From a virus: DNA of 28,136 nt. Below are positions 8,922-23,368 of the stretch, piece after piece (positions within the stretch are counted from its first letter, which is position 1; every line of letters begins with the position of its first letter). Location: positions 1-28,136 of IMG/VR virus record IMGVR_UViG_3300031603_000022; one strand, written 5' to 3'. The position numbers and the translations under genes are program-made. The notes beneath the pieces were generated by a model that saw only the letters and a list, made by a program, of their open reading frames with translations, searched no databases and was not told where the DNA came from.

Positions 8922-10100
8922 TTAGGATTTAAAATCTTCTTTTGCTTGTGCAATACCCAAGGCAGGCCGTTTGTCCGCCTGATCTACTAAGGTAGGTTTT
9001 CCCTGCGGTTTAATAACCATTTGGCCGAGGATGTTCTCAAACACTTTTTTGGTTAAAAATTTCTCCATCTTGCCAATCGGTAGTAATTTATTCTCGGATA
9101 TTTCCCCGAGCGGATAGCGTGTTTTAAGGAATTCAAAAACTGCTTTGTCGTCAGACCATTTCCTGTTGGAACGTCCTTCGACAAGTTTATAACCCTCCCA
9201 AACTTTACCCTCCAACGCCTCGCCGAGGATGAAGTCCCCCACGGCATTAGCCCAAGACGTTAGTTCTGGAATTTGATTAAAAACCTCGAGCACTTGGTCG
9301 TCTGTCAGGAGCTTAGGGTCTGCAAACTCGTGCTTGGCAATAGCGAGGTTTTGGTCTGCCAATGCCTTGCAACGTGCTTTTGCTTTGCACCACCGGCACC
9401 AGTCGCCAGGATTGCAAACTCCCTCACCGGCAAAAGCCTCTTTAGCTCTGGGCTTGACAACTGTCTCCCCCCAAGCAATAAGATCCTCCGCGGATATCCG
9501 CCAAGTTGAGACATGGTCCAGTCGCGGCTGGATAATTCCAAGCTCTACCTGATCGAAGTCGTAGGCCAATTCATGCTCAAGCAAAGCTCCAAGTCCGTAA
9601 AGTTTGAGCTGTGGGTTGTCGTCAGCCATTACGCAGATACCTTTACCATATTTAAGATCGTAAACCCTCAGAACTCCATCGGCTATTATGATAGCGTCGT
9701 TAGTCCCAAACCCGTCTGGGATGTACTCGGTAAGGTCCACCTTCTGCTCGATGAGCAACAAAGCTCCCCCGTCAGTTGCTTTGTTGGCAACCATGAACTC
9801 CTCCATAACAAAGTCTATGTATTTTTGCACTTCGACGGTCATCTCTGGGGTGTAAAGCTCGTGAGCGTGCAAGACTTTCAGCTCCTTGTTGTAATCCTTC
9901 TTTGGCATCTGGCCAGAGATAACTCTCAGACCAATATCGCCAAATTCGTGAGCTAGGGTTCCTTCCTCAGCAAATGAAGAGGAAGGCTTTTCCTTGAATT
10001 TCTCCTCGATCCTGGGGCTGGGTGTGCAATTGATCCAACGGGAAGCTCCCGAGGCTGACAGAAGAGCGTGAGCCCTCTGCTTGTGGTCGGTGCCTGCCAT
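8922..10100 (-). CDS. DUF2800 Cas4/RecB-like nuclease
   Basis: This 392-aa protein belongs to the DUF2800 family of phage PD-(D/E)XK nucleases. Visible motifs: EEGTLAH with H51, the catalytic region around D134 and DLKYG (D148, K150), QLKLYGLGAL (the RecB Q-x-x-x-Y motif) around 164-173, and four cysteines at C229, C235, C238 and C244, a spacing like the Fe-S cluster cysteines of Cas4/AddB nucleases. It probably processes DNA ends in phage recombination or replication together with the DUF2815 protein. Its start abuts the stop of the preceding gene (10100, one-base overlap). Confidence 0.88.
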   Translation of the reverse strand: MAGTDHKQRAHALLSASGASRWINCTPSPRIEEKFKEKPSSSFAEEGTLAHEFGDIGLRVISGQMPKKDYNKELKVLHAHELYTPEMTVEVQKYIDFVMEEFMVANKATDGGALLLIEQKVDLTEYIPDGFGTNDAIIIADGVLRVYDLKYGKGICVMADDNPQLKLYGLGALLEHELAYDFDQVELGIIQPRLDHVSTWRISAEDLIAWGETVVKPRAKEAFAGEGVCNPGDWCRWCKAKARCKALADQNLAIAKHEFADPKLLTDDQVLEVFNQIPELTSWANAVGDFILGEALEGKVWEGYKLVEGRSNRKWSDDKAVFEFLKTRYPLGEISENKLLPIGKMEKFLTKKVFENILGQMVIKPQGKPTLVDQADKRPALGIAQAKEDFKS

Positions 10101-10516
10101 TAGTCCAAAGTGTTTAGGAAGGTCATAAAATCAGCATATTTAGCTGGGTCGAGCTTCGTAACATTTGGAGCTCCGATCTTAACCAGTTCCGCCTTGATAG
10201 CTGTCTTGTGAACTTCAACCTTTTTAGTTAGAAGAGCTCGTACATCTTTGATTAGAATCTCAGATTCTTCAGCTACGGGAGTTTCTTCAACTACGGGAGT
10301 TTCTTCAACTACGGGAGTTTCTTCAACTACGGGAGTTTCTTCAACTACGGGAGTTGGTTTTAAAGCCTCCTCAGCTACCTGAGCTTTTGGTTTTCTGGAA
10401 GCCCTTGGCTTAGTAGTCTCAATTTTAGAAGCCGCATTCATGCTCTTTAAAAATACGCAAGTTGCCTCAATTTGGGCGTCGTTGCTTACATCGATTGATA
10501 AATTAGTTAGATCCAT
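10100..10516 (-). CDS. Hypothetical protein with VVEETP repeats
   Basis: This 138-aa protein has an N-terminal part (MDLTNLSIDVSNDAQIEATC...), a basic linker TTKPRASRKPK, then about five six-residue repeats VVEETP / VAEE in the middle, and a C-terminal helical segment (IKDVRALLTKKVEVHKTAIKAEL...) ending near TFLNTLD. The repeat gives a flexible acidic, proline-rich spacer. It overlaps the regulator gene by 14 bases and abuts DUF2800. It may be an adaptor for the recombination proteins, but no family is recognised and the role is unknown. Confidence 0.65.
   Translation of the reverse strand: MDLTNLSIDVSNDAQIEATCVFLKSMNAASKIETTKPRASRKPKAQVAEEALKPTPVVEETPVVEETPVVEETPVVEETPVAEESEILIKDVRALLTKKVEVHKTAIKAELVKIGAPNVTKLDPAKYADFMTFLNTLD
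10268..10355 (-). repeat. 18-bp tandem repeat, about five copies, in frame
   Basis: The unit ACTACGGGAGTTTCTTCA (plus-strand reading) recurs every 18 bases, with CTACGGGAG at 10273, 10291, 10309, 10327 and 10345. Copies are nearly identical and encode the six-residue unit VVEETP. Exact copies imply recent expansion or slippage, and copy number may vary between related phages. Confidence 0.85.
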
Positions 10517-11965: not shown

Positions 11966-12146
11966 GCTTTTTGTTTTTAGTGAATAGTTTAATTAATGCA
12001 GGTTTGGTTGCCTTCCATATTACTTTAACGGCTGGCCAGAGCCAATACCAATTTTCTTTAAGAAACTTTATAACCTCGGCCGGGTCCGCAGCTTCCGCCG
12101 CGAGAATCACCTCAGCTTCTTTGTATGCTTTTTCTCGCCGTGTCAT
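11958..12146 (-). CDS. Small basic protein with a Trp-rich membrane-active helix
   Basis: This 62-aa protein has a charged N-terminal helix (MTRREKAYKEAEVILAAEAA) and a Trp-rich hydrophobic helix around residues 32-55 (NWYWLWPAVKVIWKATKPAL) ending in the basic tail KLFTKNKKHE. It could insert in the membrane interface. It overlaps the DUF5675 gene by 4 bases (ATGA) and the next gene by 8. In its lysis-cassette setting it may be a holin-like or spanin-like helper, but no family is recognised. Confidence 0.6.
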   Translation of the reverse strand: MTRREKAYKEAEVILAAEAADPAEVIKFLKENWYWLWPAVKVIWKATKPALIKLFTKNKKHE

Positions 12147-12562
12147 CCGTTCAAAATTATTAACTCAGTTTCATCTGGTAATATACTCAATAATTCCCGA
12201 AGCGCGTTACCGCTCGAAGTGACGTCGATCAATCCATCCTGGTCAAGGTCTGCCAACTTCTGACCGGGTGCTCCACAACCCCGGAGTTGCTTGGCGTAGT
12301 TTGCAACGTGCCACTTAATCCCAGACCTGCCAGGGACGTTTAACACCTCAAAATGTGGGTAGTCAAAGGCTGGGCTAGATTCTAATTTCTGCAAGGTGTA
12401 TGTGCCCACAGGTATGCAGGAAATATTTGTCTGGTTGAACTGCCAAGACAGCTCCATGAGATAGCAGGAATAGATCATCTCCATGTCCCGAGTTGCGATA
12501 ATGTTAGATATTGTTTCCCTGCCCGGAACGTCGTGCCTTATTTGATAAATCTTGTAACTCAT
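12143..12562 (-). CDS. DUF5675 protein, probable lysis-associated
   Basis: This 139-aa protein carries the DUF5675 pattern: IPVGTYTLQKLESS at about 51-64, HFEVLNVPGRSGIKWH at about 70-85, then NYAKQLRGCGAPG with a conserved Cys near residue 96. DUF5675 proteins are frequent in Bacteroidota phages and prophages near lysis genes, with the chemistry not established. Conserved His and Cys suggest an enzyme acting on the cell wall. It overlaps the membrane-protein gene upstream by 4 bases (ATGA). The C-terminus ends in a short helical segment ELIILNG. Confidence 0.82.
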   Translation of the reverse strand: MSYKIYQIRHDVPGRETISNIIATRDMEMIYSCYLMELSWQFNQTNISCIPVGTYTLQKLESSPAFDYPHFEVLNVPGRSGIKWHVANYAKQLRGCGAPGQKLADLDQDGLIDVTSSGNALRELLSILPDETELIILNG

Positions 12563-12888
12563 TTTTTACTCTTTCCGCTTCTTGGGTTAAACTTATTGTT
12601 AAGATCATCAAGAATAACACTCTCCCCCTTGTCGTTACATATACTGATTACCACCCCCAGAGCATTCTTATTCTCTCGAACGTCCTCACAAGCATTCTCT
12701 ATGAGAGCCTCGTTCTCTCTTATCCTCATGAACCCAGCTGTGAAAACGCCAGTTAATAGGGTCCCAATGATAGCCAGAACCACTAATTGATTACTCACAA
12801 AATGGTTAAATTTAGTGTCGAGCGAAGCTATCCCGTTGTGGATGACGACCAGTAAATCCTCTTTTTCTTCGACTGAGAGTTTAGACAT
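12559..12888 (-). CDS. Single-helix membrane protein in the lysis cassette
   Basis: This 109-aa protein has an N-terminal charged region, one transmembrane helix at about residues 33-52 (LVVLAIIGTLLTGVFTAGFM), and a hydrophilic C-terminal half with two Cys residues (ACEDVRENK and SICNDKGES). Topology and position between a 3-TM protein and DUF5675 are consistent with a spanin- or holin-type partner. It overlaps the upstream gene by 8 bases and the downstream gene by 4. No definite family is recognised. Confidence 0.65.
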   Translation of the reverse strand: MSKLSVEEKEDLLVVIHNGIASLDTKFNHFVSNQLVVLAIIGTLLTGVFTAGFMRIRENEALIENACEDVRENKNALGVVISICNDKGESVILDDLNNKFNPRSGKSKK

Positions 12889-13219
12889 TGAATTTAGTTT
12901 TAAACGCTTTTTTAATTATTGACCCTCCACTATATCCTATCCCTACCAATTGAAACTGCCAACCCAGCGCTAGCCCCATTACATAAAGAGGGGGAGCTTC
13001 TTTTAGTTGGCTTGGACTTGCTGCCATTGCTGCGCAGATAACCACCACAGGCACCAACGAGGCTAAGTATTTGTATTTATTCCTTCGCTTAAAAGTCGAT
13101 AGCTTAAAATCCTTCCTAGTCTTATACGCTGTGTAAAGCTCGCCTGTTACATGAACGGCAATTCCAGACAGCGCCCAAGCCAAATAAATTAGAAAGGTCA
13201 GTAAGCTATAAAGTATCAT
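12881..13219 (-). CDS. Candidate holin (three membrane helices)
   Basis: This 112-aa protein has three hydrophobic segments: residues about 4-25 (YSLLTFLIYLAWALSGIAVHV), 53-69 (LVPVVVICAAMAASP) and 78-98 (LYVMGLALGWQFQLVGIGYSG). Basic clusters (KTRKDFK, KRRNKYK and the C-terminal KKAFKTKF) fit loops on the cytoplasmic side. Size and topology match holins, and it begins the gene set that includes DUF5675. It is separately transcribed from a promoter at 13238-13272. The holin call is by topology and position only. Confidence 0.6.
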   Translation of the reverse strand: MILYSLLTFLIYLAWALSGIAVHVTGELYTAYKTRKDFKLSTFKRRNKYKYLASLVPVVVICAAMAASPSQLKEAPPLYVMGLALGWQFQLVGIGYSGGSIIKKAFKTKFNV

Positions 13220-13392
13220 TTAGTTATTTCAATATTCGTAAATCTATCCCCACTAGTCATGATTATTGTCAATTTATGTAAATTCATAATATTCGCCCGT
13301 TTGATCTTCACAACCAATCTCATTTTATACTTTCTTTTGAAACTTTAAAGTAAATCATAATTTTTAATTATAAAATTCTCGATTACGGGGGC
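13220..13392 (-). other. 173-bp intergenic region with a promoter and a small hairpin
   Basis: It separates the DGR-target gene from the lysis cassette. After the target gene comes an A/T-rich dyad ATAATT-AAA-AATTAT (about 13363-13377), then the promoter boxes at 13238-13272. No RT, template repeat or other gene fits here. Confidence 0.5.
13238..13272 (-). promoter_or_regulatory. Promoter of the lysis cassette
   Basis: TTGACA (13272-13267) and TAGATTTAC (13246-13238) are separated by 20 bases (TTG to TA: 23 bases), matching the Bacteroidota layout of a TTG box and a TAnnTTTG-like box. The ATG of the candidate holin is 18 bases downstream. The box TAGATTTAC is identical to that of the promoter at 442-450. 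Confidence 0.5.
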
Positions 13393-13402
13393 TTACAGCC
13401 CC
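13388..13402 (-). other. GGGGCT hairpin overlapping the stop of the DGR-target gene
   Basis: GGGGCT-GTA-AGCCCC is a perfect 6-bp stem with a 3-base loop covering the stop codon. It sits directly at the end of the putative variable region, where DGRs carry a G/C-rich IMH element and a hairpin needed for homing. It has no T run, so it is not an obvious terminator. Confidence 0.45.
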
Positions 13403-13530
13403 AAACAGCAAAGCCGAGACCCGAAATACGCAGCCGAATACGAATTCGACGCAGCGTAAGACGAGTGCACGCACCCGAACCCCGCATTCACGCCACTATA
13501 CACAGAACCGCCAACGACAGGAGCCCGTAA
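13393..13530 (-). repeat. Putative DGR variable region (VR)
   Basis: This covers the last 45 codons. By my count the terminal 108 bases have about 12 A and 56% G+C on the coding strand, although the rest of the gene is A/T-rich. Loss of A is the mark of A-directed mutagenic retrohoming. Variable-looking positions (V, Y-S, V, V-H-S, A, Y, Y, A-A) fall at the sites that are Asn codons in template repeats of this class. No matching template repeat was found in this window. Confidence 0.6.
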
Positions 13531-15570
13531 TCCTAGATAACTCAGAGCCGTTGAGAAGCAATAGTCCGCCCAATAAGTAAATGACCCACCCCCGTTGTCT
13601 TCTGACATCATTACTCCATTAGCACCGCCAATTAACTGCTTTATATATCCGTTAGTCCTCGTAATCTGGTTGGTTAAAAGAATACTATTTTCATCAATCA
13701 CATCCGTAAAGTTTGACGGGGATTTCACAACGTATAGCAATGACTTACCCCCTTCGACCACCGTTTGATTGTAGATATTACAACCATCAACCCACTCCCA
13801 AATGTCTCCAAAAGGATTCTCAACACCCCGATAACGATTAACTGTCGTTGTGGCGGTTCCTACGTAATCTGGTATGGTGTAGCTCACTTCTCCACTACCA
13901 TTTGCCAATGAATTAGAGGTCCCGCAAGGGATTAGTGGATTGTAACCGTTAAACGTACCCCATTCCCCACTTATTATATTAGTTACTCCACTACCTAAAC
14001 CGCCCTGTTTGTAGCCTTCCGCCGTCAATGTCGCATCAACCGCAGTCTGGCTATTTCGAGTAGCATATTCAACCAAAAACAGCCTCCACACGGCTTGATG
14101 ATTCTCCCAAGATTTTTGATAGAAAGTTGAACCCCGATTATTTGCGTAAGTTCGGTAATTAGTCCTGCTAATTAAAGTGGCGGGCATTCCTAATTGTTGA
14201 TCGGTAGTATTATTTCCCCCTTTATAAGTGGATGTGACATTCTGAACGCTTGCTAGTTCAAGATTAGATCTATTGAGCGCCGCCTTATAAGCGCCTATGT
14301 AGAATTTAACTACTCTTGTAAATCCTGAGATGTTTTCTTCAGATATTTTAATTCTGCGTGTATTGCCAGATTCCTCCCATTTGTAATAGTGAGCAGGAAT
14401 CTCAATCATTACCTGCCCGTCTGTACCATCTAAATTACTTGCATCCCCATTAGCTTTTTTACTCCAATCGGTAGAGTTTAAGTAGTAATTCACTGCCCCG
14501 TTATCAGCAATTAAACAACCCCTCATTTTATTTTGGAGAGGAAGTGAAACGTGCTTATCGAGATCCCCTATACGAGTAACCACAGGGTTAGAATTAGTTA
14601 TATCCCATTCTATTCCATAACTAATATTGTCATCTAAAATAGCTGCATAATAAATTATAATATTCTTGATCCGCTGCCCAGTTGTCAACGTAAACGTCAT
14701 TCTATCACCATTTAGATTGAGCCAAGCACTAGAGGATTCAAGGTCAGCAACTATACCAGAATAAGCTGTCCAACTTGATCCGTCGTAATAATCAAAGGTC
14801 ATCGTTGTAGCGGTCGAACCTGTAAAGTTAAAATAGGTATCCCCGCTTGTTAGACATGAGTAGTATTTTTCACCCTCTAACGTTTCATTCACTTCAAAAG
14901 TTCCGCTAATATTAGTAAACGTTTTTGGTCTTGCATTTAAAACAGGTTCATCAAAAAAAGTATTTCGATATAACAATGTATCCATGTAATTTATCAGGAC
15001 AGTATTGTTAAATATTTTCGTTTCATCTGTCTGAGTAGCTCGAAGCAAATCTAAATACTTATCGTACCGTTGATCGGAAGTTAAAAGATAATCATAAGCA
15101 AAAACAGATAATACATAAGTCCCAGCTGTTGGCGTTATTTCTAAATCAGTTGAAAAGTCTATCCCTGCTGAAAATTCCGATATAACACACTGCCAAGCGT
15201 TTTGAGTGTAAACGTCCGTGTCAGAATTGTTTACATAGTTTTGGGTTAATCCCGTTCCTGAAAATGAACCGCCTGTAATCTCTAATTTATCAGCTCCGCC
15301 GTCAAGTAGCAGTTTTGTATTATCAGCAGGTAAAAGATAGGTTACTATGGTCTTTATACCTGTCAAAGTTACACCGCTATCAAAATCAGTAGAAGTGCCA
15401 TTAAAGTAAACAGCATAGTTTTTATCCGTGCGCTTAAATTCACCGCTTGTTAGGACTCCTTTCGTACCAAAGCTAATAAGCGAACCACTGCCATTTCCAT
15501 TAAATTGATATTTTTGCGCCTGTAACCCAAGCCCGCAGAATAGGAATATTAAAATTATAAGTTTCTTCAT
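13393..15570 (-). CDS. Secreted DGR-target-like adhesin (C-type-lectin fold)
   Basis: This 725-aa protein begins with signal peptide MKKLIILIFLFCGLGLQAQ, predicted to be cut near residue 19. The middle resembles Bacteroidota phage adhesins: around residues 335-400 come IGDLDKHVSLP, NKMRGCLI and GQVMIEIPAHYYKWEE. From about 589 the formylglycine-generating-enzyme/C-type-lectin signature FGDIWEWVDG (W591) appears. The last 45 residues read LRAPVVGGSVYSGVNAGFG then SSYAASNSYSAAYFGSRLC, the layout of DGR variable regions (compare GGSW-NNG-NAG-NNA-S-N-GFR). It is probably a receptor-binding protein with diversified binding site. The 32-aa microprotein overlaps its start (ATGA). Confidence 0.82.
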   Translation of the reverse strand: MKKLIILIFLFCGLGLQAQKYQFNGNGSGSLISFGTKGVLTSGEFKRTDKNYAVYFNGTSTDFDSGVTLTGIKTIVTYLLPADNTKLLLDGGADKLEITGGSFSGTGLTQNYVNNSDTDVYTQNAWQCVISEFSAGIDFSTDLEITPTAGTYVLSVFAYDYLLTSDQRYDKYLDLLRATQTDETKIFNNTVLINYMDTLLYRNTFFDEPVLNARPKTFTNISGTFEVNETLEGEKYYSCLTSGDTYFNFTGSTATTMTFDYYDGSSWTAYSGIVADLESSSAWLNLNGDRMTFTLTTGQRIKNIIIYYAAILDDNISYGIEWDITNSNPVVTRIGDLDKHVSLPLQNKMRGCLIADNGAVNYYLNSTDWSKKANGDASNLDGTDGQVMIEIPAHYYKWEESGNTRRIKISEENISGFTRVVKFYIGAYKAALNRSNLELASVQNVTSTYKGGNNTTDQQLGMPATLISRTNYRTYANNRGSTFYQKSWENHQAVWRLFLVEYATRNSQTAVDATLTAEGYKQGGLGSGVTNIISGEWGTFNGYNPLIPCGTSNSLANGSGEVSYTIPDYVGTATTTVNRYRGVENPFGDIWEWVDGCNIYNQTVVEGGKSLLYVVKSPSNFTDVIDENSILLTNQITRTNGYIKQLIGGANGVMMSEDNGGGSFTYWADYCFSTALSYLGLRAPVVGGSVYSGVNAGFGCVHSSYAASNSYSAAYFGSRLCCLGL

Positions 15571-15665
15571 GTCTTTCTTCGTTTAATCCAGTGCTTTATA
15601 TTCATAACCACCACGTATAAAAATAGTATCATTGCAAATATAGTACCTGCTGGAAGTTCTTTCAT
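15567..15665 (-). CDS. 32-aa membrane microprotein
   Basis: The 32 residues begin MKELPAGTIFAMILFLYVVV, one transmembrane helix (about 7-21), followed by a strongly basic tail MNIKHWIKRRKT. It is too short for usual gene callers. Support comes from position: its ATG overlaps the upstream stop as TAATG, and its own stop overlaps the DGR-target start as ATGA. A hydrophobic helix with C-terminal Lys/Arg predicts N-out/C-in orientation. It may help membrane targeting or export of the adhesin, or be a small lysis/antiholin-like peptide. Function unknown. Confidence 0.65.
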   Translation of the reverse strand: MKELPAGTIFAMILFLYVVVMNIKHWIKRRKT

Positions 15666-16132
15666 TACAACCAAGTTCTATGTGCTAACCAAATCGCTGT
15701 TATGTCAACAACCCTATCTTTATTCTTAGTCCTCCAATCTTTTCGGAAGGCTACAACCTCAGTTTTTCTATCCCAATAGACTGTCTCTGTTACAACCACA
15801 TTCTCTGGATCGGTGTTATCTATACTACCTTGCACTTTTACGGCTGTGCCTGCTAAGAATGGCTTTATATACTCCTTCATTGTCTTTTCTGCAAACTCGT
15901 AGACTTTTTTAAGGTCTGAATAAGCGAACTGCCCGTCTATGCCAGCTTGACAAGCACCTATACTTGGATAATAAAGTAGTACATTCCATATCGCTGTCCC
16001 TTGCTCAAGAGTCATAGGAATAGGCTCTGCTTTGGGTTTTGGAAACATCGAGTTAAAAATCAAAACCTCTTGACTAAATCCTGAGAATGTTATTAGGATT
16101 ATTGCTGTTATTAAAATTGCTAGTTTTTTCAT
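15665..16132 (-). CDS. Secreted protein in the tail/adhesin cluster (155 aa)
   Basis: Signal peptide MKKLAILITAIILITFSGFSQ precedes a mature domain of about 134 residues with segments EPIPMTLEQGTAIWNVLLYY, QAGIDGQFAYSDLKKVYEF and TEVVAFRKDWRTKNKD. ATG 16132 is chosen because it begins the signal peptide and is 7 bases after the previous stop; the frame could start at 16165, but that adds residues that break the signal peptide. Family not recognised. It is stop/start-coupled (TAATG) to the microprotein. Likely a periplasmic or surface protein, or a virion part with a signal peptide. Confidence 0.7.
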   Translation of the reverse strand: MKKLAILITAIILITFSGFSQEVLIFNSMFPKPKAEPIPMTLEQGTAIWNVLLYYPSIGACQAGIDGQFAYSDLKKVYEFAEKTMKEYIKPFLAGTAVKVQGSIDNTDPENVVVTETVYWDRKTEVVAFRKDWRTKNKDRVVDITAIWLAHRTWL

Positions 16133-16139
16133 TATCTTC

Positions 16140-16367
16140 TTATTTTTTAATGATGAGATTACCAAAAGAATCCGAAGCGTCTAACTCTAAAAAGCCTTGG
16201 ATATAATAGTGACTTCCTGAGTGTATCTCATGGTGAGCGTAATCAATACTCATTGCAACGCCCGTTGTAGCATCCACCTTAGACGTTGAAGATACCGCAC
16301 TTCCTGATTGAGCCTGAAGCCCAAAGGAAATAAGTATTAATCCTAGTACAAATAGTATTTTTTTCAT
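16140..16367 (-). CDS. Small secreted protein (75 aa)
   Basis: Signal peptide MKKILFVLGLILISFGLQAQ is followed by about 55 residues, SGSAVSSTSKVDATTGVAMS then a hydrophilic beta-rich part ending DSFGNLIIKK. I chose ATG 16367 (two bases after the stop of the upstream gene, TAA-TC-ATG); the frame begins at 16376. It has no recognised domain. Its mature part is short and could be a decoration or a piece of a multi-part fibre complex with its secreted neighbours. Confidence 0.68.
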   Translation of the reverse strand: MKKILFVLGLILISFGLQAQSGSAVSSTSKVDATTGVAMSIDYAHHEIHSGSHYYIQGFLELDASDSFGNLIIKK

Positions 16368-16369
16368 GA

Positions 16370-17251
16370 TTACCATGCTTTAGAAACAAGTGAAGTAACA
16401 GTTGCATCTGTTCCAGGATCAGTGCCAACTTTAATTTGTGGTTGGATAGCTGGAATCACGTTATCAGTTTGGAAAGTGTAGATTAGTAAAACATCTGCAT
16501 CCGTTCCAAGTTCAATATATTCTACATCAACCGTAATTACAGTAGAAGAAACAGTAGCTATTAACTGACTATATTCGTCCGTAGCTGCTTGAGTTGGTAG
16601 AGCTAAGAATCTTACTTGAAAGTCTGTGGCAGCGTTTATATCTAATATAACCCAATAAGCTCCTTTTCTGTAAGTCCTCATGTCTATTGGATCACCTATA
16701 TCAACCCATGAGGTTGTGACTGCCTGAGAAGTACCTTCGTGATCTACTGGAGATGTATAATGCGAAGAGAGCGGATTAAGTTGTAGAAACTTGAGAGCTT
16801 CGGCTGTGTAATCAACTGTGATTTTCGGACCATTAATAACCACCTCCAAAGCATCCCCCGAGGCTAGCGTGTCACCGACCTCTCCAGTAATAGTAACCAC
16901 CCCAGCCGAATGAGTAAGTGTTATCCCGCTTTGTCCATTTATATAGTAACCACTTGCTCCCGATCTGACATATTTAATGTAGACTAATTGGGCATCGTTT
17001 ACAATACTAACCGGCAGATTAGACAGCGTGAGTGTGGATGCTGAAGTGTACACAGCCGTTCCAACTTCTGTATTAATATAATAAAGTCCTGACGGAGTTC
17101 CACCACCTGACGAAGCGCCAACATCCTGAACGTTAAGCGTGTCACCCGTTGAGATAGCCGAGATATCAATCCCGATAACCTTCTCGTTGACCTGAGCCTG
17201 AAGTCCTAGCCCCAGCCCTATAATCGCGAATAATAATATTAATTTCTTCAT
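16370..17251 (-). CDS. Secreted protein, possible fibre-associated (293 aa)
   Basis: Signal peptide MKKLILLFAIIGLGLGLQAQ is followed by a beta-rich mature region of about 273 residues. Parts such as YTSASTLTLSNLPVSIVND, GITLTHSAGVVTITGEVGD and a later segment with TSWVDIGDPIDMRTYRKGAY look like phage fibre or knob-like beta sandwiches. The start overlaps the upstream stop by 4 bases (ATGA). No clear family. It lies between fibre-like and adhesin-like genes and most likely belongs to the same receptor-binding apparatus. Confidence 0.72.
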   Translation of the reverse strand: MKKLILLFAIIGLGLGLQAQVNEKVIGIDISAISTGDTLNVQDVGASSGGGTPSGLYYINTEVGTAVYTSASTLTLSNLPVSIVNDAQLVYIKYVRSGASGYYINGQSGITLTHSAGVVTITGEVGDTLASGDALEVVINGPKITVDYTAEALKFLQLNPLSSHYTSPVDHEGTSQAVTTSWVDIGDPIDMRTYRKGAYWVILDINAATDFQVRFLALPTQAATDEYSQLIATVSSTVITVDVEYIELGTDADVLLIYTFQTDNVIPAIQPQIKVGTDPGTDATVTSLVSKAW

Positions 17252-17673
17252 TTCGTTTGACTTTTAGTGATTCGTTTATAAGGCATGAATATTTTAGTCA
17301 CCCCGTTAATATCAATTTTTGCACCAATATAATCAAACGGGATGTACCTGTACTGAAAGGAATAAGGGCCGACCTCTGTCAGGGAGTCCACTAACCCCAC
17401 ATTGTAAGGCATGAAAAGGCTGTCAGGGATAAGTGCCGGGTCTGTCGGATAGCCATTCGTGGCAGGATCGCTTGCCACCACTATTTGGATCGTTGCGTTC
17501 AAAGTTCCCTGCAACGTGTCAGCGTAGAAATACCACCCTTCAACAAAATTAGGGTCAAAAACCCTGAAGCGGATGATCGTATCAGTCTCCACGTTTAACG
17601 TGTCAGTAAATACCCTCTGACCCATGACAAGAAGTGGGGCCGTCAGTGCGATAATTAAAAGTAATTTTTTCAT
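17248..17673 (-). CDS. Secreted protein (141 aa)
   Basis: Signal peptide MKKLLLIIALTAPLLVMGQ precedes a beta-rich mature domain with RVFTDTLNVETDTIIRFRVF, a pattern of alternating strands, and DSLTEVGPYSFQYRYIPFDY. Function is unknown. It follows the fibre gene after 20 bases and is coupled to the next gene by a 4-base ATGA overlap, so it is in the same operon. The content looks like a small beta-sandwich domain, consistent with a fibre chaperone or accessory tail protein. Confidence 0.7.
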   Translation of the reverse strand: MKKLLLIIALTAPLLVMGQRVFTDTLNVETDTIIRFRVFDPNFVEGWYFYADTLQGTLNATIQIVVASDPATNGYPTDPALIPDSLFMPYNVGLVDSLTEVGPYSFQYRYIPFDYIGAKIDINGVTKIFMPYKRITKSQTK

Positions 17674-17692
17674 CTTGTTTATTTATTTATTG

Positions 17693-20035
17693 CTAATTTA
17701 GTAATAATCTGCTTAGTAGTCCGTTTTTTTTCCAACTGCCCGGTTTTGCTTCTACTAAAAGCCCTTTTTTATAATATTTTGTTGTCTTTCTTCTTTGCTT
17801 GTAATCGTAGGTGTATTCGATTTGATACTCCGTATGGTCTATTCCTACTCTCCAATCATCTATCGAGGAGGGAACTGGATGCGGGCCGGGTTGGTTTGGC
17901 ATCACAGGGGGCCCGACATAAGTAATGATGCCGCCTGAAACTGTAACCTCATCACCATTAGCAATTAAAAAAGTATCATCAATTCCGGCTGTCCCGTTAT
18001 CTTTAAATCCAGCTGAAGCGTCAACTGTTCCAGTTAGGTCCAAACTTACGTTGGAGGTGAGTTCACTATTGGTTAACGCTAACACTGCAGACGCATCGGG
18101 ACTTCTCAATCCTGTTACTGTTGAACTCATATATAGCCTTACCCAACCTCCAGGACCTGCCAATTGAAGCTGATCGGATGATGATTCATCATACCACATC
18201 TTATAATCTGAAGACGTACCCCAGATAGTGTATATATTATCTTTTGCCATTAAATTACCAGAAGAGTATTCAACCCCTGTAAAAGCACCAAAACTCCCTC
18301 CGTTATTGTACTGCACATCGTTGGTGAGTCCTGCCGGTGTCCCTCCGGATGGCAAAGTTTGCCATGACTTATCCCCTCTCCAATATTGGGCTGTTGTTCC
18401 TGCGGTTATTGACGGCTCTGCGCCGATGTCGCTTAATACATTTGCAGGCGTTCTTTGAGAAATAGTTCCTCCTCCAGTTGGAGCAGTTAAAAAATCACCT
18501 GATCCGTTCACCATGGTTTGAATATTCCCCACCCCATAGATTGTCGCACCTAATGAAGTTGTGGCGAATTTGGTGACATTATTATAATACAGCGCCACTG
18601 CGCCGTCTGGTGTAAATCTAGCCATCGTCTCGCCCCCGAATTTTCTCAGTTGAATGTATCCACTTGCTACATCCCAGCTGGCGTTTCCAGCCGAATTATA
18701 AATATAGCTATCGGAATCTAGGCTTAGTTTGAAGTCGGAAGTAGACCCATTAAAGGTCATTGTTCCTAAATTTGATAATGTGACATTACTATTTTGGAGT
18801 AATTTACCAGTACCACCATCAAAACGAGCTAAAGCATTAACAGTTGAACTTGCTGGACCAACTACATCCCCCGTAGCAATAGGAAGTGTTTGCCATGACT
18901 TATCCCCTCTCCAATATTGGGCTGTTGTTCCTGCGGTTATTGACGGCTCTTTACCGTTAAATGTATTCCAGTCAGTGTTAGATAAGGCCCCGATTGCTGA
19001 GGTGCTGGACAGCCCTAAGCTCATTACCTGAGTTGATAGGCTCAATCCATTTGCTGGCGTTCCGACTGTTACTGGATCGTGGATAGCCGTATAGGCAGCA
19101 TCCCAGTTAGTTTGGCTGGCATCTGTCGGCAACGAATACCCGGCGCTAAAGCCAATCCCTAAAGTTCCCGCCCCCGTGATTGGTGATCCTGATACAGTAA
19201 AACCTGTCGGGACAGTTTGAGCAACGCTTGTTACCGTACCTGTCCCACTAACATCCCCCCATTCGGGAATAAGTCCCGCGCTAACTTTTAGGATTTGTCC
19301 CGCCGTGCCAATCGGCAATCTGGCCGGTACCGTTTGGAAATACATAATATCCCCCAGTGTTGTCAAAGGGGATGTCAATTTACCGTTCCAAGTTGAAGCG
19401 GAAGCAATCCTACCGTCCGCTAATGTCCCTGTCCATCCTGCTGTAATTGATGTAGCGCTTAATAGAGATGTCGTTGGACTTCCTCCTAAAGTGAGTGTAA
19501 CATTTGTATCATCTACTTTAGTTAAAGCTGATGGAGTTAGAGCGTCTTGCTTTCCGTTAAATATATTCCAATCAGTATTACTTAAAGCTCCGATTGTTGA
19601 GGTGCTTGAAAGGCCTAAACTCAGCGCCTGAGTCACCAAACTCAACCCGTTAGCCGTTCCAAGCGTGACAGCATTATGCCTTGATGTTGTGTTAAGATTC
19701 CACTGAGTCGAGTTGTTGGTTATTGAAGCACTCCAAGCGGATCCGGTTGACAAAGCAATTCCTGCGCCCGGATATACCATTGACCCACCCCCTGACGAGA
19801 GAAGAGTCCTGTAATTAACTCCGTCCAACGAGTCAACCGGGTTAGCCATTCGCTTGTAACTGTATTGGCCTGCGCTGTCAGCGTGAGGAGCTATCAGAGA
19901 GTCTACTGCTCCCGATCCGATTCCGTACATCAGTTTCCTGAGCTTCAAAGTCCTCGCATCCACGGCTCCGCCCTGAGCCATTAAGCCAAGGGAGAAAAGG
20001 AGGACTATTGTTGTTACTATTAATTTTCTCATCAT
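17693..20035 (-). CDS. Tail-fibre-like protein with signal peptide (780 aa)
   Basis: Signal peptide MMRKLIVTTIVLLFSLGLMAQ is followed by a long repeat-built fibre. Visible repeats: LSNTDWNxFNGK (twice), GTTAQYWRGDKSWQTLP (twice), LGDIMYFQTVPARLPIGTAG, and TVTSVAQTVPTGFTV, all common in phage fibres of Bacteroidota phages. The C-terminal 65 residues are hydrophilic and basic (YDYKQRRKTTKYYKKGL). A 63-bp stretch is exactly duplicated in the gene. It overlaps the upstream gene by 4 bases. The likely role is a long tail fibre, yet the signal peptide is unexpected for a virion protein assembled in the cytoplasm. Confidence 0.82.
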   Translation of the reverse strand: MMRKLIVTTIVLLFSLGLMAQGGAVDARTLKLRKLMYGIGSGAVDSLIAPHADSAGQYSYKRMANPVDSLDGVNYRTLLSSGGGSMVYPGAGIALSTGSAWSASITNNSTQWNLNTTSRHNAVTLGTANGLSLVTQALSLGLSSTSTIGALSNTDWNIFNGKQDALTPSALTKVDDTNVTLTLGGSPTTSLLSATSITAGWTGTLADGRIASASTWNGKLTSPLTTLGDIMYFQTVPARLPIGTAGQILKVSAGLIPEWGDVSGTGTVTSVAQTVPTGFTVSGSPITGAGTLGIGFSAGYSLPTDASQTNWDAAYTAIHDPVTVGTPANGLSLSTQVMSLGLSSTSAIGALSNTDWNTFNGKEPSITAGTTAQYWRGDKSWQTLPIATGDVVGPASSTVNALARFDGGTGKLLQNSNVTLSNLGTMTFNGSTSDFKLSLDSDSYIYNSAGNASWDVASGYIQLRKFGGETMARFTPDGAVALYYNNVTKFATTSLGATIYGVGNIQTMVNGSGDFLTAPTGGGTISQRTPANVLSDIGAEPSITAGTTAQYWRGDKSWQTLPSGGTPAGLTNDVQYNNGGSFGAFTGVEYSSGNLMAKDNIYTIWGTSSDYKMWYDESSSDQLQLAGPGGWVRLYMSSTVTGLRSPDASAVLALTNSELTSNVSLDLTGTVDASAGFKDNGTAGIDDTFLIANGDEVTVSGGIITYVGPPVMPNQPGPHPVPSSIDDWRVGIDHTEYQIEYTYDYKQRRKTTKYYKKGLLVEAKPGSWKKNGLLSRLLLN
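18357..18950 (-). repeat. Exact 63-bp direct repeat pair in the fibre gene
   Basis: Bases 18357-18419 and 18888-18950 are identical over 63 bp and encode the module EPSITAGTTAQYWRGDKSWQ. Identity at the DNA level, including third positions, indicates recent duplication or recombination within the fibre gene. A second module, LSNTDWNxFNGK, is also repeated (about 18957 and 19552) but has diverged. Confidence 0.85.
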
Positions 20036-21216
20036 GCTGATACTTGAGTTCTGTCAAAATTAATCACAATTCTTAGTATTGCCCCAGCTCCTGTTACCGT
20101 AAAGTACAGAGTCTCGGCGTTGTCTATATTCCTCAACTTGTGTCTTGGGATTTCTAAAAATACCCCGCCTTGCACGTAAGTTGCTTTGTCAATTGTCCCC
20201 TCAGTCGTATCGAAAATGTCATCCCCGCCAACTGTTGTGCCACATTTGACCGTTGCGCTCGCTGCCGCGCTGGTTGTGGCGTGTTGCAGCCAAACCGTGT
20301 GGAGCATATACTCCGCAGGTCGGGTTGCCTGCACTCCTGCGCCTGTCACCGCGTCTTCTCTGACTGTCACTATCGCGTCATCCATATCACTGCTTCCTGT
20401 TTCAATTCCTAAATCGTCAACATTTAATCCTATTGCATTTTTCTCTGTCAGCTCCACAGTAACCTGAAAAAGTGTAGACCCGCCAAATAGTTCTGAGTCT
20501 ATGGCATCCCCTTTGATATACCTAATATCATTAATGGTGAAAGTGTCTAAGCTGGTCACAGTCATCAACCTTTTGACCATATATTTAGGCACTGGTCCTG
20601 TTTTGAGGATGATGCCGGTGTAATTGGTTGCAGATATCAGGGTGTCCGATTGGGAGCCTCTAAGAACCTCGTTTTCATCTGTTAAGAATATTTCTCTGTC
20701 CTGAGCCTCTATGTAAAAAAACATACTGGCAATATTGGACCAATCTATAAAGAATCCCGACAGGTCCGCGTTGCTCCGGTCCTGGTTGTTGTAATCTACT
20801 CGCTTGATCCTACCCTTAGCAATATCCTCAGTTAGGTCACTGATTTTAATTGGCTCGCCGGTTATCACGTCAGCGCCTTGAGTGGCTGTCATCCAAACGA
20901 CTTTACCGTTGTAAGGCGTCATGTCGACACTGAAATTCCAGTAAGTGCGAGTAACCACTCCAACTATTGTATTAATCAGGGTGCCTGCAACCGTGGCCAG
21001 CAAGGTTCCATCTTCGTAAATCTTCAGTGATACGGCTGTGGCTACATCTGAGATGAGTTGAAAGGGTATAGTCTCGCCATTGTTAGCCTTCTGACAGTAC
21101 CCTTTTGAAGTGAATCCTGCTTGCTTGATATTGGCGTGCAAGGTGTTGCTCTCAGTCGGGTAATTCCCTGTGAGGTCTTTGAAGGTTAAGGCGCTATCTG
21201 CTGGACTAACTAACAT
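20032..21216 (-). CDS. Tail-tip or baseplate protein (394 aa)
   Basis: This 394-aa protein has no signal peptide. It is beta-rich with segments such as IPFQLISDVATAVSLKIYED, VTRTYWNFSVDMTPYNGKVV and FFIDWSNIASMFFYIEAQDR, ending EIPRHKLRN and RIVINFDRTQ. Its position between the 720-aa tail protein and the fibre gene, with 11- and 4-base overlaps, fits a distal tail or fibre-attachment protein. I recognise no family. Two halves may be separate domains, one resembling Ig-like beta-sandwiches. Confidence 0.65.
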   Translation of the reverse strand: MLVSPADSALTFKDLTGNYPTESNTLHANIKQAGFTSKGYCQKANNGETIPFQLISDVATAVSLKIYEDGTLLATVAGTLINTIVGVVTRTYWNFSVDMTPYNGKVVWMTATQGADVITGEPIKISDLTEDIAKGRIKRVDYNNQDRSNADLSGFFIDWSNIASMFFYIEAQDREIFLTDENEVLRGSQSDTLISATNYTGIILKTGPVPKYMVKRLMTVTSLDTFTINDIRYIKGDAIDSELFGGSTLFQVTVELTEKNAIGLNVDDLGIETGSSDMDDAIVTVREDAVTGAGVQATRPAEYMLHTVWLQHATTSAAASATVKCGTTVGGDDIFDTTEGTIDKATYVQGGVFLEIPRHKLRNIDNAETLYFTVTGAGAILRIVINFDRTQVSA

Positions 21217-23368
21217 ATTGCTCTATTATTTCGATTACAGCGTCATCGCTATTATTTTTCTTCTTCAAATTTAGTAAGTAACCTGAAAGGCTCGCAGTAA
21301 ATTTGATTAATTTATAAGGATTAGCCTGAAGATACGCGATATCATCCCAGTCAAGTTTGACATTGACTCGGTGCATGAAGGGCTTGAAAATAGGATCTTC
21401 TAAGTCATCCACTACGATATCATCATTCTCAGTTACGGTGTAACCCTCTCCCGTTGTTTTGAGAGTTTGGTTTTTATCTGAGGTTTGGAACCTGATTTTG
21501 CTCGATAAAAACTTGGTCAGCGAGGCCTTTAGCAAACTGCCACGGCGGATCAACATTCTGGCCGGTGTGATAATTAAGTTTAAGGAACCTATGTTAAACA
21601 GCGAGGTCTCGTCATCTACTACCACGTTTTCGTTTGTCTCCGCGTCCCAGTCAATGCCAGAATCCGTGGTGTTTCGTTGGCTTTTTGTGACAAAAATATC
21701 ATTGTCTGACTTCAAGTCCTCCGACCCGTTCACGTGCACTGAATTAGCCAGCGCTTTGGCAAGCCCGCGAGTGTCCCCCCTAATATCTGAGACGTTGTTA
21801 AATTTTGTGCTAGTGTTGACTATCGAAGTTCTTTGACTTCCAACGTTATATTCTCCACGACCGTTAATATCCTCGTAATCAAAAGATTTATATCCACTTG
21901 CAATATCTGCATAAGCCAGCTCAGGCATCCCCTCACTCTCGATGTCGAATACACTGATCCTATCGGATAGGTCGAGCCCGGCAGTCGCATCAAAGAAGAA
22001 CGCGTACTCCTCGACCCGGAGTCTGAGAAACGAGTCGATGACCTCAAAAGTATAGCCAAGATGGAGCATAGATGTCGCCCCTTGAAACCATTTGTCCCAG
22101 CTAAGGGCCAGCGGGCTGTTATTATCGCTCAGCTTCTCGCCCCTGATATGCAACCCCGAGGCGTAGTTGTAAAATCTTAATTGATTCTCACTAGGGTAAA
22201 AATCCCCTGCCAAGTTGTAGGCAGTATCTAACCTGCCTAAATACTCGGAGTAGAAGGTCCACTGCGCGTCTAACATATGACGGGACAACTGCTCCCCTGT
22301 CTCATATATTGGCAACGTCTCTCGGGTTAACTCCGGGCTGGTTATGACCACCTCCTTTAAAGTCAGATTAGAGGAGTTAATTAGCACATCGACTTCTCCC
22401 GCGCCGTCTGGTATGAATAAAAAGTAAACAATTATTGACTGCGTGGCTGCTAGTGTTAAGGAAAGGTCTATGTCAAGATCGTAAGACGCGCTGGATTCTG
22501 GGATAACGAATAGTTGAATTAGGTTAGTGTCGATTAGACTGCTTGAGTTATCAACAACATCGACATAAAGCCCCAGACTCGTATTGCCCGAAGGGTTTGG
22601 TCTATTCCTTAAATAGTTTAATTCGATTGAGACCGTACCTTTTAAAGTGACCGTTCTATCTTCATCAGAGTTAACCAATATCCCGTATAAATAATTCCTA
22701 GCCGTGTCAAGAGTAGGCAGGTCGATCGAGACGGTATCATCAAAATCAGACCGTACAATCAAGTTCGGAAAGTATACGTACTTGGCCACCCCCGCAGATT
22801 GGGTGAAGTTGTAACCCAGATCCCACGACCACACAGCTGTCCGAAAAGCGTTGATCTCAGGATATTTTAAATATTTAGCCAAATCAGCGTAAGGCACAAT
22901 CTCAAAACCTCCGATAGTCGTATATTTAGTAACGTCTATGTCTATTTTCTTCCTAAGATCGAATTTAACCTCTTGCCCGCTTTTTTCTGCGTTGATTTGT
23001 ACCCCAATAGCGTAATCCCCAGACTTAACTACTTTCCTAGTTGGAAATTGCAGGCTGTAACTTGTCGGAAATTCTATATACTGAAGCGTAGTTTTATGCA
23101 GGTAATACTGACGCATCGTGCACTGTGCGTTCATTTCACTTGCCGCGAATAACCGGTTTATAAGATCTGCGCCCTCCTTATAGAATGTCAGTGACTGAAC
23201 GTTAAAAGTAGAAAACACCCCGCCGACTTTAATATCCCGATCCATCTCAAGTTCGCCATCTTCCCATTCTTTGGGAGGGGTAGTCAGATCGATATTCCCA
23301 AGACTTGACTCTAGGCGAACCAAATATTTAGGAGGAGTATTACTTGCCGTTTGGGATTGTATTGTCAT
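21206..23368 (-). CDS. Large tail/baseplate protein (720 aa)
   Basis: This 720-aa protein follows the tape measure gene, the position of distal tail/Tal-like proteins in siphophages. It begins MTIQSQTASNTPPKYLVRLE and has segments typical of baseplate proteins, e.g. SSLGNIDLTTPPKEWEDGEL, SGQEVKFDLRKKIDIDVTKY, DSFLRLRVEEYAFFFD, and a later NVVVDDETSLFNIG. No lysozyme or peptidase motif is visible. It overlaps the tape measure gene by 4 bases and the next gene by 11. The exact family is not assigned. Confidence 0.7.
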   Translation of the reverse strand: MTIQSQTASNTPPKYLVRLESSLGNIDLTTPPKEWEDGELEMDRDIKVGGVFSTFNVQSLTFYKEGADLINRLFAASEMNAQCTMRQYYLHKTTLQYIEFPTSYSLQFPTRKVVKSGDYAIGVQINAEKSGQEVKFDLRKKIDIDVTKYTTIGGFEIVPYADLAKYLKYPEINAFRTAVWSWDLGYNFTQSAGVAKYVYFPNLIVRSDFDDTVSIDLPTLDTARNYLYGILVNSDEDRTVTLKGTVSIELNYLRNRPNPSGNTSLGLYVDVVDNSSSLIDTNLIQLFVIPESSASYDLDIDLSLTLAATQSIIVYFLFIPDGAGEVDVLINSSNLTLKEVVITSPELTRETLPIYETGEQLSRHMLDAQWTFYSEYLGRLDTAYNLAGDFYPSENQLRFYNYASGLHIRGEKLSDNNSPLALSWDKWFQGATSMLHLGYTFEVIDSFLRLRVEEYAFFFDATAGLDLSDRISVFDIESEGMPELAYADIASGYKSFDYEDINGRGEYNVGSQRTSIVNTSTKFNNVSDIRGDTRGLAKALANSVHVNGSEDLKSDNDIFVTKSQRNTTDSGIDWDAETNENVVVDDETSLFNIGSLNLIITPARMLIRRGSLLKASLTKFLSSKIRFQTSDKNQTLKTTGEGYTVTENDDIVVDDLEDPIFKPFMHRVNVKLDWDDIAYLQANPYKLIKFTASLSGYLLNLKKKNNSDDAVIEIIEQYVS

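What the first reader, a model, noticed from the sequence alone, without database searches (positions are those of the whole stretch)
13393..13530. DGR-like variable region at the end of a tail-locus adhesin, with no RT or template in the window
The last 45 residues follow the C-type-lectin/FGE pattern of diversity-generating retroelement targets (GG-S, NAG, repeated A/S/Y sites, then GFR-like FGSRLC). The coding strand is depleted in A (about 12 in the last 108 bases by my count) and about 56% G+C in an A/T-rich gene, as expected after A-directed mutagenesis. No reverse transcriptase motif or template repeat occurs here. Either they lie elsewhere in the phage or this is an orphan target driven in trans. 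Seen: sequence pattern and base bias. Known: DGR target fold. Inferred: active diversification.
Basis: partly seen in the sequence, partly recalled or inferred. Interest (0 to 1): 0.82.

Follow-up and report, generated by a model that had tools for sequence, protein, structure and literature searches.

The report
Phage adhesin hypervariable tip, mutator missing
The end of this phage adhesin gene is a genuine "variable repeat" of the kind rewritten by diversity-generating retroelements, but the reverse transcriptase and template that sit beside it in about 90% of its relatives are absent from this 28 kb fragment, and, unusually for a phage target, the protein starts with a predicted secretion signal.

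Summary
The last ~117 bases of gene 13393-15570 (-) are a diversity-generating-retroelement (DGR) variable repeat (VR). Homologues share the C-terminal ~410 residues (phrog_5302 "tail protein"); about 100 carry a template repeat just downstream whose mismatches to the VR fall almost only on template adenines, and 92 of 101 loci with >2 kb downstream have a reverse transcriptase (RT) within 5 kb. Mapped to those templates, all 10 adenines of the window VR lie in the 12 codons expected to be AAY/TAY, all 12 end in C/T, and no constant codon has an A. The predicted fold matches the DGR protein TaqVP (Z 23.9). In near-identical homologue pairs differences concentrate in this block. The record holds no template and no RT; the usual cassette site is a 172-bp gap, and ~15-19 kb of the phage is probably missing. 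A minority of relatives are also cassette-less. So this is a VR separated from its cassette: remote in the unsequenced part, supplied in trans, or lost recently; ongoing activity is not shown. Extra finding: the target and five neighbours carry Sec-type signal peptides; no homologue does, and phage DGR targets were reported to lack them.

The parts
13393..15570 (-). Target gene: adhesin/tail-locus protein, 725 aa, phrog_5302
   Evidence: ORF; PHROG match residues 302-723, E 3.6e-108
15517..15570 (-). Predicted Sec signal peptide MKKLIILIFLFCGLGLQA|Q
   Evidence: Hydropathy 3.0 with KK n-region and AQ end; no SignalP available
14671..15516 (-). N-terminal region, no relatives found, fold unknown
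   Evidence: Homologues align only from about residue 300; single-sequence model pLDDT 32
13396..14532 (-). C-type-lectin/FGE-like domain carrying the variable face
   Evidence: AlphaFold2 pLDDT 86.7; TaqVP 5vf4 Z 23.9, Mtd Z about 10.5
13396..13512 (-). Variable repeat (VR)
   Evidence: A-depletion; mapping to homologous template repeats
13426..13506 (-). Span of the 12 predicted variable codons (11 AAY, 1 TAY in the template)
13396..13425 (-). Constant 3' end of the VR, at the place of the homing (IMH) end in relatives
   Evidence: Position by homology with TR/VR pairs; function inferred
13388..13402 (-). Short inverted repeat GGGGCT-GTA-AGCCCC over the stop codon; possible target-recognition hairpin, weak evidence
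   Evidence: not significant against shuffles (z -1.25)
13220..13392 (-). Gap where relatives carry template and RT; A/T-rich, no template
15665..20035 (-). Five neighbouring tail-locus genes (15665-16165, 16140-16376, 16370-17251, 17248-17673, 17693-20035), each with a predicted Sec signal peptide

Best explanation
Bases 13396-13512 are the variable repeat of a diversity-generating retroelement target: a phage adhesin whose C-terminal lectin-like domain displays about 12 hypervariable residues. The block was last written from a template in which those codons were AAY (one TAY): the template RNA was reverse-transcribed with errors at adenines and the copy homed onto the 3' end of the gene. The cassette (template and RT) is not beside the target, where relatives keep it; it lies in the unsequenced part of this phage, is supplied in trans, or was lost recently. 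Shown: base pattern, homology to TR/VR/RT loci, predicted fold, absence of the cassette from 28.1 kb. Inferred: past mutagenic homing in this lineage and a receptor-binding role. Not shown: present activity.
For: Homologues with template (63 of 84 viral and 37 of 46 genome loci) and mismatches almost only at template A; RT within 5 kb in 92 of 101 loci; near-identical homologue pairs differ mainly in this block; 10 of 10 A in predicted AAY/TAY codons, 12 of 12 ending in a pyrimidine, 22 of 22 constant codons A-free; fold of TaqVP and Mtd; A minimum of the whole record lies here.
Against: No template or RT in hand, so the template is predicted, not seen. The window VR has two extra residues relative to most relatives, whose placement was chosen by me. 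No reads, so no direct variation data.
Confidence: 0.9

Rival explanations
1. Remote target in cis: the cassette lies in the unsequenced ~15-19 kb of the same phage and serves the VR at a distance.
For: The record is a fragment; flavophages with similar genes are 41-43 kb. Remote VRs are documented in Bacuni phages (PMC8143477), induced gut prophages (PMC12629997) and cyanobacteria (PMC7517822). In cr50_1 the RT lies upstream of the target. The VR carries no off-target A, as if still maintained.
Against: In the family the RT is nearly always within about 1 kb. In the longer cassette-less relatives searched (38.7, 62.4 and 34.7 kb) no RT was found anywhere in the record.
Confidence: 0.42
2. Orphan target: the phage has no cassette. 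Either the VR is rewritten in trans by a DGR of the host, a prophage or a co-infecting phage, or it is a recent relic after loss of the cassette or acquisition of the target gene alone.
For: Cassette-less VRs of the same family exist: L018/L122, L041, L070, L083/L084 fresh-looking, L095 and L115 decayed; for Bacteroides reticulotermitis no cognate template was found in the draft genome although another DGR is present.
Against: No donor cassette known; zero off-target A leaves little time since the last copying or implies continued service.
Confidence: 0.48
3. No DGR involved: ordinary lectin-like tail protein whose base bias comes from composition or codon usage.
For: No template in hand.
Against: Codon-level agreement with templates of homologues, A-free constant codons against the gene's own usage, and base bias confined to the VR.
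Confidence: 0.03

Closest known systems
phrog_5302 tail-protein DGR targets of Bacteroidota phages (crAss-like cr55_1, cr50_1; Bacteroides phage Versailles; IMG/VR loci L017-L094)
   Same: Homologous C-terminal domain at 30-49% identity, same VR architecture and position at the 3' end of a tail-locus gene
   Different: They have RT and usually template beside the target; no signal peptide; different N-terminus; VR two residues shorter in most
TaqVP of Thermus aquaticus (5vf4) and Mtd of Bordetella phage BPP-1
   Same: Fold of the variable domain
   Different: Sequence identity 14-20%; both known with their cassettes
Remote DGR targets (Bacuni phage VR1; gut prophages with a second distal VR; cyanobacterial remote variable proteins)
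   Same: VR not next to the RT
   Different: There the cognate template is known in the same genome; here it is not
Signal-peptide-bearing DGR targets of bacteria (surface-displayed variable proteins)
   Same: N-terminal export signal on a DGR target (PMC6199706; PMC8144416)
   Different: Those are cellular; this one lies in a phage tail locus

Membership tests
DGR target (variable protein) | VR at the 3' end of the gene, adenine-depleted, with variable codons at AAY positions | tested here: met
DGR target (variable protein) | C-type-lectin/FGE-like fold carrying the variable residues | tested here: met
DGR target (variable protein) | Homology to targets with demonstrable template repeats and RT | tested here: met
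DGR target (variable protein) | Cognate template repeat with adenine-only mismatches | tested here: inconclusive
   None in the 28.1 kb record; the record is a fragment
DGR target (variable protein) | Variation confined to the VR among copies of the same phage | not testable with these tools
   No reads and no near-identical record of this phage; shown only for relatives
Complete DGR cassette (target, template, RT, often accessory protein) | DGR-type reverse transcriptase in the element | tested here: inconclusive
   Absent from 28.1 kb, rest of genome unseen; so not filed as a complete cassette
BPP-1-type target recognition | GC-rich hairpin of 7-10 bp with a GRNA loop 4-34 bp after the VR (PMC3240598) | tested here: inconclusive
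   6-bp stem with 3-nt loop over the stop codon, z -1.25; stem and loop do not fit the BPP-1 pattern; most relatives lack a clear one (17 of 79)

The most novel reading that the evidence does not exclude
A phage encodes a hypervariable DGR-type adhesin that is exported by the host Sec pathway, as one of six consecutive signal-peptide-bearing tail-locus proteins, rather than simply built into the tail in the cytoplasm, and relies for its diversification on a cassette that it does not carry itself.
Probability: 0.15. Interest if true: 0.75.

Novelty: new variant of a known kind. Interest (0 to 1): 0.5.

Why it matters
DGR surveys find targets by looking next to the RT, and one large survey states that remote targets would be missed (PMC8144416). 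A VR recognised from base pattern and homology alone, without its cassette, shows how such targets can be found, and the family offers natural cassette-less cases at different stages of decay, in which loss, remoteness and service in trans can be told apart. A signal peptide on a phage DGR target departs from the published statement that phage DGR proteins lack them (PMC6199706) and raises the question of where the variable adhesin acts.

Tried and rejected
Template search in the window by adenine-tolerant ungapped scan and by blastn with the predicted template: non-self hits are short and near the level of a shuffled sequence. De novo self-comparison of the window for TR/VR pairs found only an 18-base tandem repeat (10261-10354) and a repeat within the fibre gene (18353/18884), both without a DGR pattern. 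Exact searches of viral contigs for the 3' end of the VR and for the 3' half of the predicted template: none. The 5' half of the predicted template hit one contig only, L175, where it lies in a genuine template between another target and an RT: an unrelated phage, so no donor, but a check that the predicted template looks like a real one. Full-length target, tail protein and tape-measure protein as single queries found no relatives in viral contigs. Polymerase relatives L006-L015 have neither an RT nor a match to this target. A draw of 395 Bacteroidota genomes gave three with a homologue, none closer than 51%. The N-terminal structure model was useless (pLDDT 32). Pfam has no model for the target, and no PDB sequence matches the profile. 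The hairpin at the stop codon was considered as evidence and downgraded.

Full report
What is there. Gene 13393-15570 (-, 725 aa) lies at the end of a siphovirus tail locus (tape measure 23365-26262, structural protein 21206-23368), before small membrane-type and DUF5675 genes (12143-13219) and a replication block with exonuclease and PolA. Its residues 302-723 match phrog_5302 'tail protein' (E 3.6e-108). PolA is closest among named phages to Croceibacter phage P2559Y (62%), which has the same order exonuclease, binding protein, PolA, helicase, endonuclease, helicase, and the structural protein to Tenacibaculum and Leeuwenhoekiella phages, so the host is most likely a flavobacterium (inference). 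The window is the whole IMG/VR record, a linear fragment. The comparable flavophages are 41-43 kb, so about 15-19 kb is probably missing (estimate).

The observation. The coding strand of the last 138 bases has 13 A while the gene has 30% A; the lowest-A 129-base windows of the record, on either strand, are exactly here. G+C rises to 57-58% over 13400-13550.

Homologues settle the nature of the block. 80 viral loci and 46 bacterial-genome loci carry the same domain. A scan that tolerates mismatches mainly at template A found a template downstream in 63 of 84 viral loci (one only 33 nt) and in 37 of 46 genome loci. The template peptide is typically GVLFGGNANNGANAGFAYANSNNTPSNTNANIGSR, and mismatches to the VR are almost all at template A (58 aligned pairs). 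With more than 2 kb of downstream sequence, 92 of 101 loci have an RT within 5 kb, nearly all within about 1.1 kb after the target. Pairs identical over 940 nt before the block differ by about 9-12% in the last 160 nt (L048/L100, L021/L037, L005/L126), so the family is actively diversified.

The window VR read against these templates. GGSVYSGVNAGFGCVHSSYAASNSYSAAYFGSRLCC reads as template GGNVNNGVNAGFGYVNSNNAASNSNSNANFGSRLCC. All 10 A of the 38 codons lie inside the 12 codons predicted AAY/TAY (p 3.7e-6), all 12 end in a pyrimidine, and all 22 constant codons that have an A-bearing synonym avoid it (about 10^-5 at the gene's own usage). Caveat: the window has two more residues here than most relatives; I placed the insertion, so about two of the 12 codons are post hoc. 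Off-target A is 0 in the window; cassette-bearing relatives have 0-4, the fresh-looking cassette-less ones 0-3, and two decayed cassette-less ones 8 and 12. So the block has not been long without template copying (inference).

Fold. AlphaFold2 of residues 301-725 with 36 sequences gives mean pLDDT 86.7 and pTM 0.90. The best match is TaqVP, a DGR variable protein (Foldseek E 1.1e-7; Z 23.9 over 263 residues), followed by formylglycine-generating enzymes (Z about 12) and Mtd (Z about 10.5).

No cassette. No second copy of the block, no RT by PF00078 or by tblastn with three DGR RTs, no template by A-tolerant scan or by blastn with the predicted template. The usual site of the cassette is a 172-bp A/T-rich gap. 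Relatives in the same state are L018/L122 (the same Bacteroides reticulotermitis locus), L041, L070, L083/L084, L095 and L115 (L130 has a template, so its RT was probably missed). For B. reticulotermitis no cognate template was found by blastn in the draft genome, nor by A-tolerant scan near two RTs; one of these belongs to a separate DGR about 17 kb away with three VRs of its own. Remote VRs as such are known. I cannot decide between a remote cassette in the missing part (0.42) and an orphan or trans-served VR (0.48).

Signal peptides. The target and the five genes before it each begin with a Sec-type signal peptide, mostly with the AQ end common in Bacteroidota (12-residue hydropathy 2.7-3.1, against at most 1.1 in the preceding tail genes). 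Of 130 target homologues none has one, apart from one weak internal hit in L024 (some loci are cut off upstream). Two polymerase relatives have a large ORF with such a peptide (L169 573 aa, L009 1086 aa), so this may be a habit of the phage group. Benler et al. [quoted passage not shown] report them for cellular targets (PMC8144416). This is a hydropathy prediction without SignalP, and where the protein acts is unknown.

Most likely working. The adhesin binds a host surface ligand through the variable face of its lectin-like domain; template copying with adenine errors rewrote that face. Shown: pattern, homology, predicted fold. Inferred: binding role, past homing. Open: source of the template, current activity, and whether the protein sits on the virion or is exported.

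Noticed in passing
window 13393-20035 (-): Six consecutive tail-locus genes, the DGR target included, begin with Sec-type signal peptides; phages JQ and Arctus_1, related by the structural protein, show none in the matching region.
   Followed up: partly
L169:5786-7507 and L009:417-3677: Large ORFs with signal peptides in phages related by polymerase, suggesting that such proteins recur in this phage group.
   Followed up: no
L164 (Bacteroides reticulotermitis, G018:C90:86000-104000): A separate DGR with one template and three VRs (template at about 8091, VRs at about 3679, 6876 and 7509 on the minus strand), about 17 kb from a cassette-less target of this family.
   Followed up: partly
L163 (G018:C51:1-9000): A further RT locus with repeats of about 160 bases showing adenine-only mismatches in one direction (13 of 14), apparently another DGR.
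   Followed up: no
L175, IMGVR_UViG_3300031760_000061: Complete DGR (target VR, template, RT) in an unrelated phage, found only with the template pattern predicted from the window.
   Followed up: partly
window 10261-10354: Tandem 18-base repeat encoding PVVEET repeats in gene 10100-10516.
   Followed up: no
L018 and L122: Two assemblies of the same B. reticulotermitis target differ by one base in length (1260 against 1259 nt match), splitting the frame in L122; probably an assembly error.
   Followed up: no
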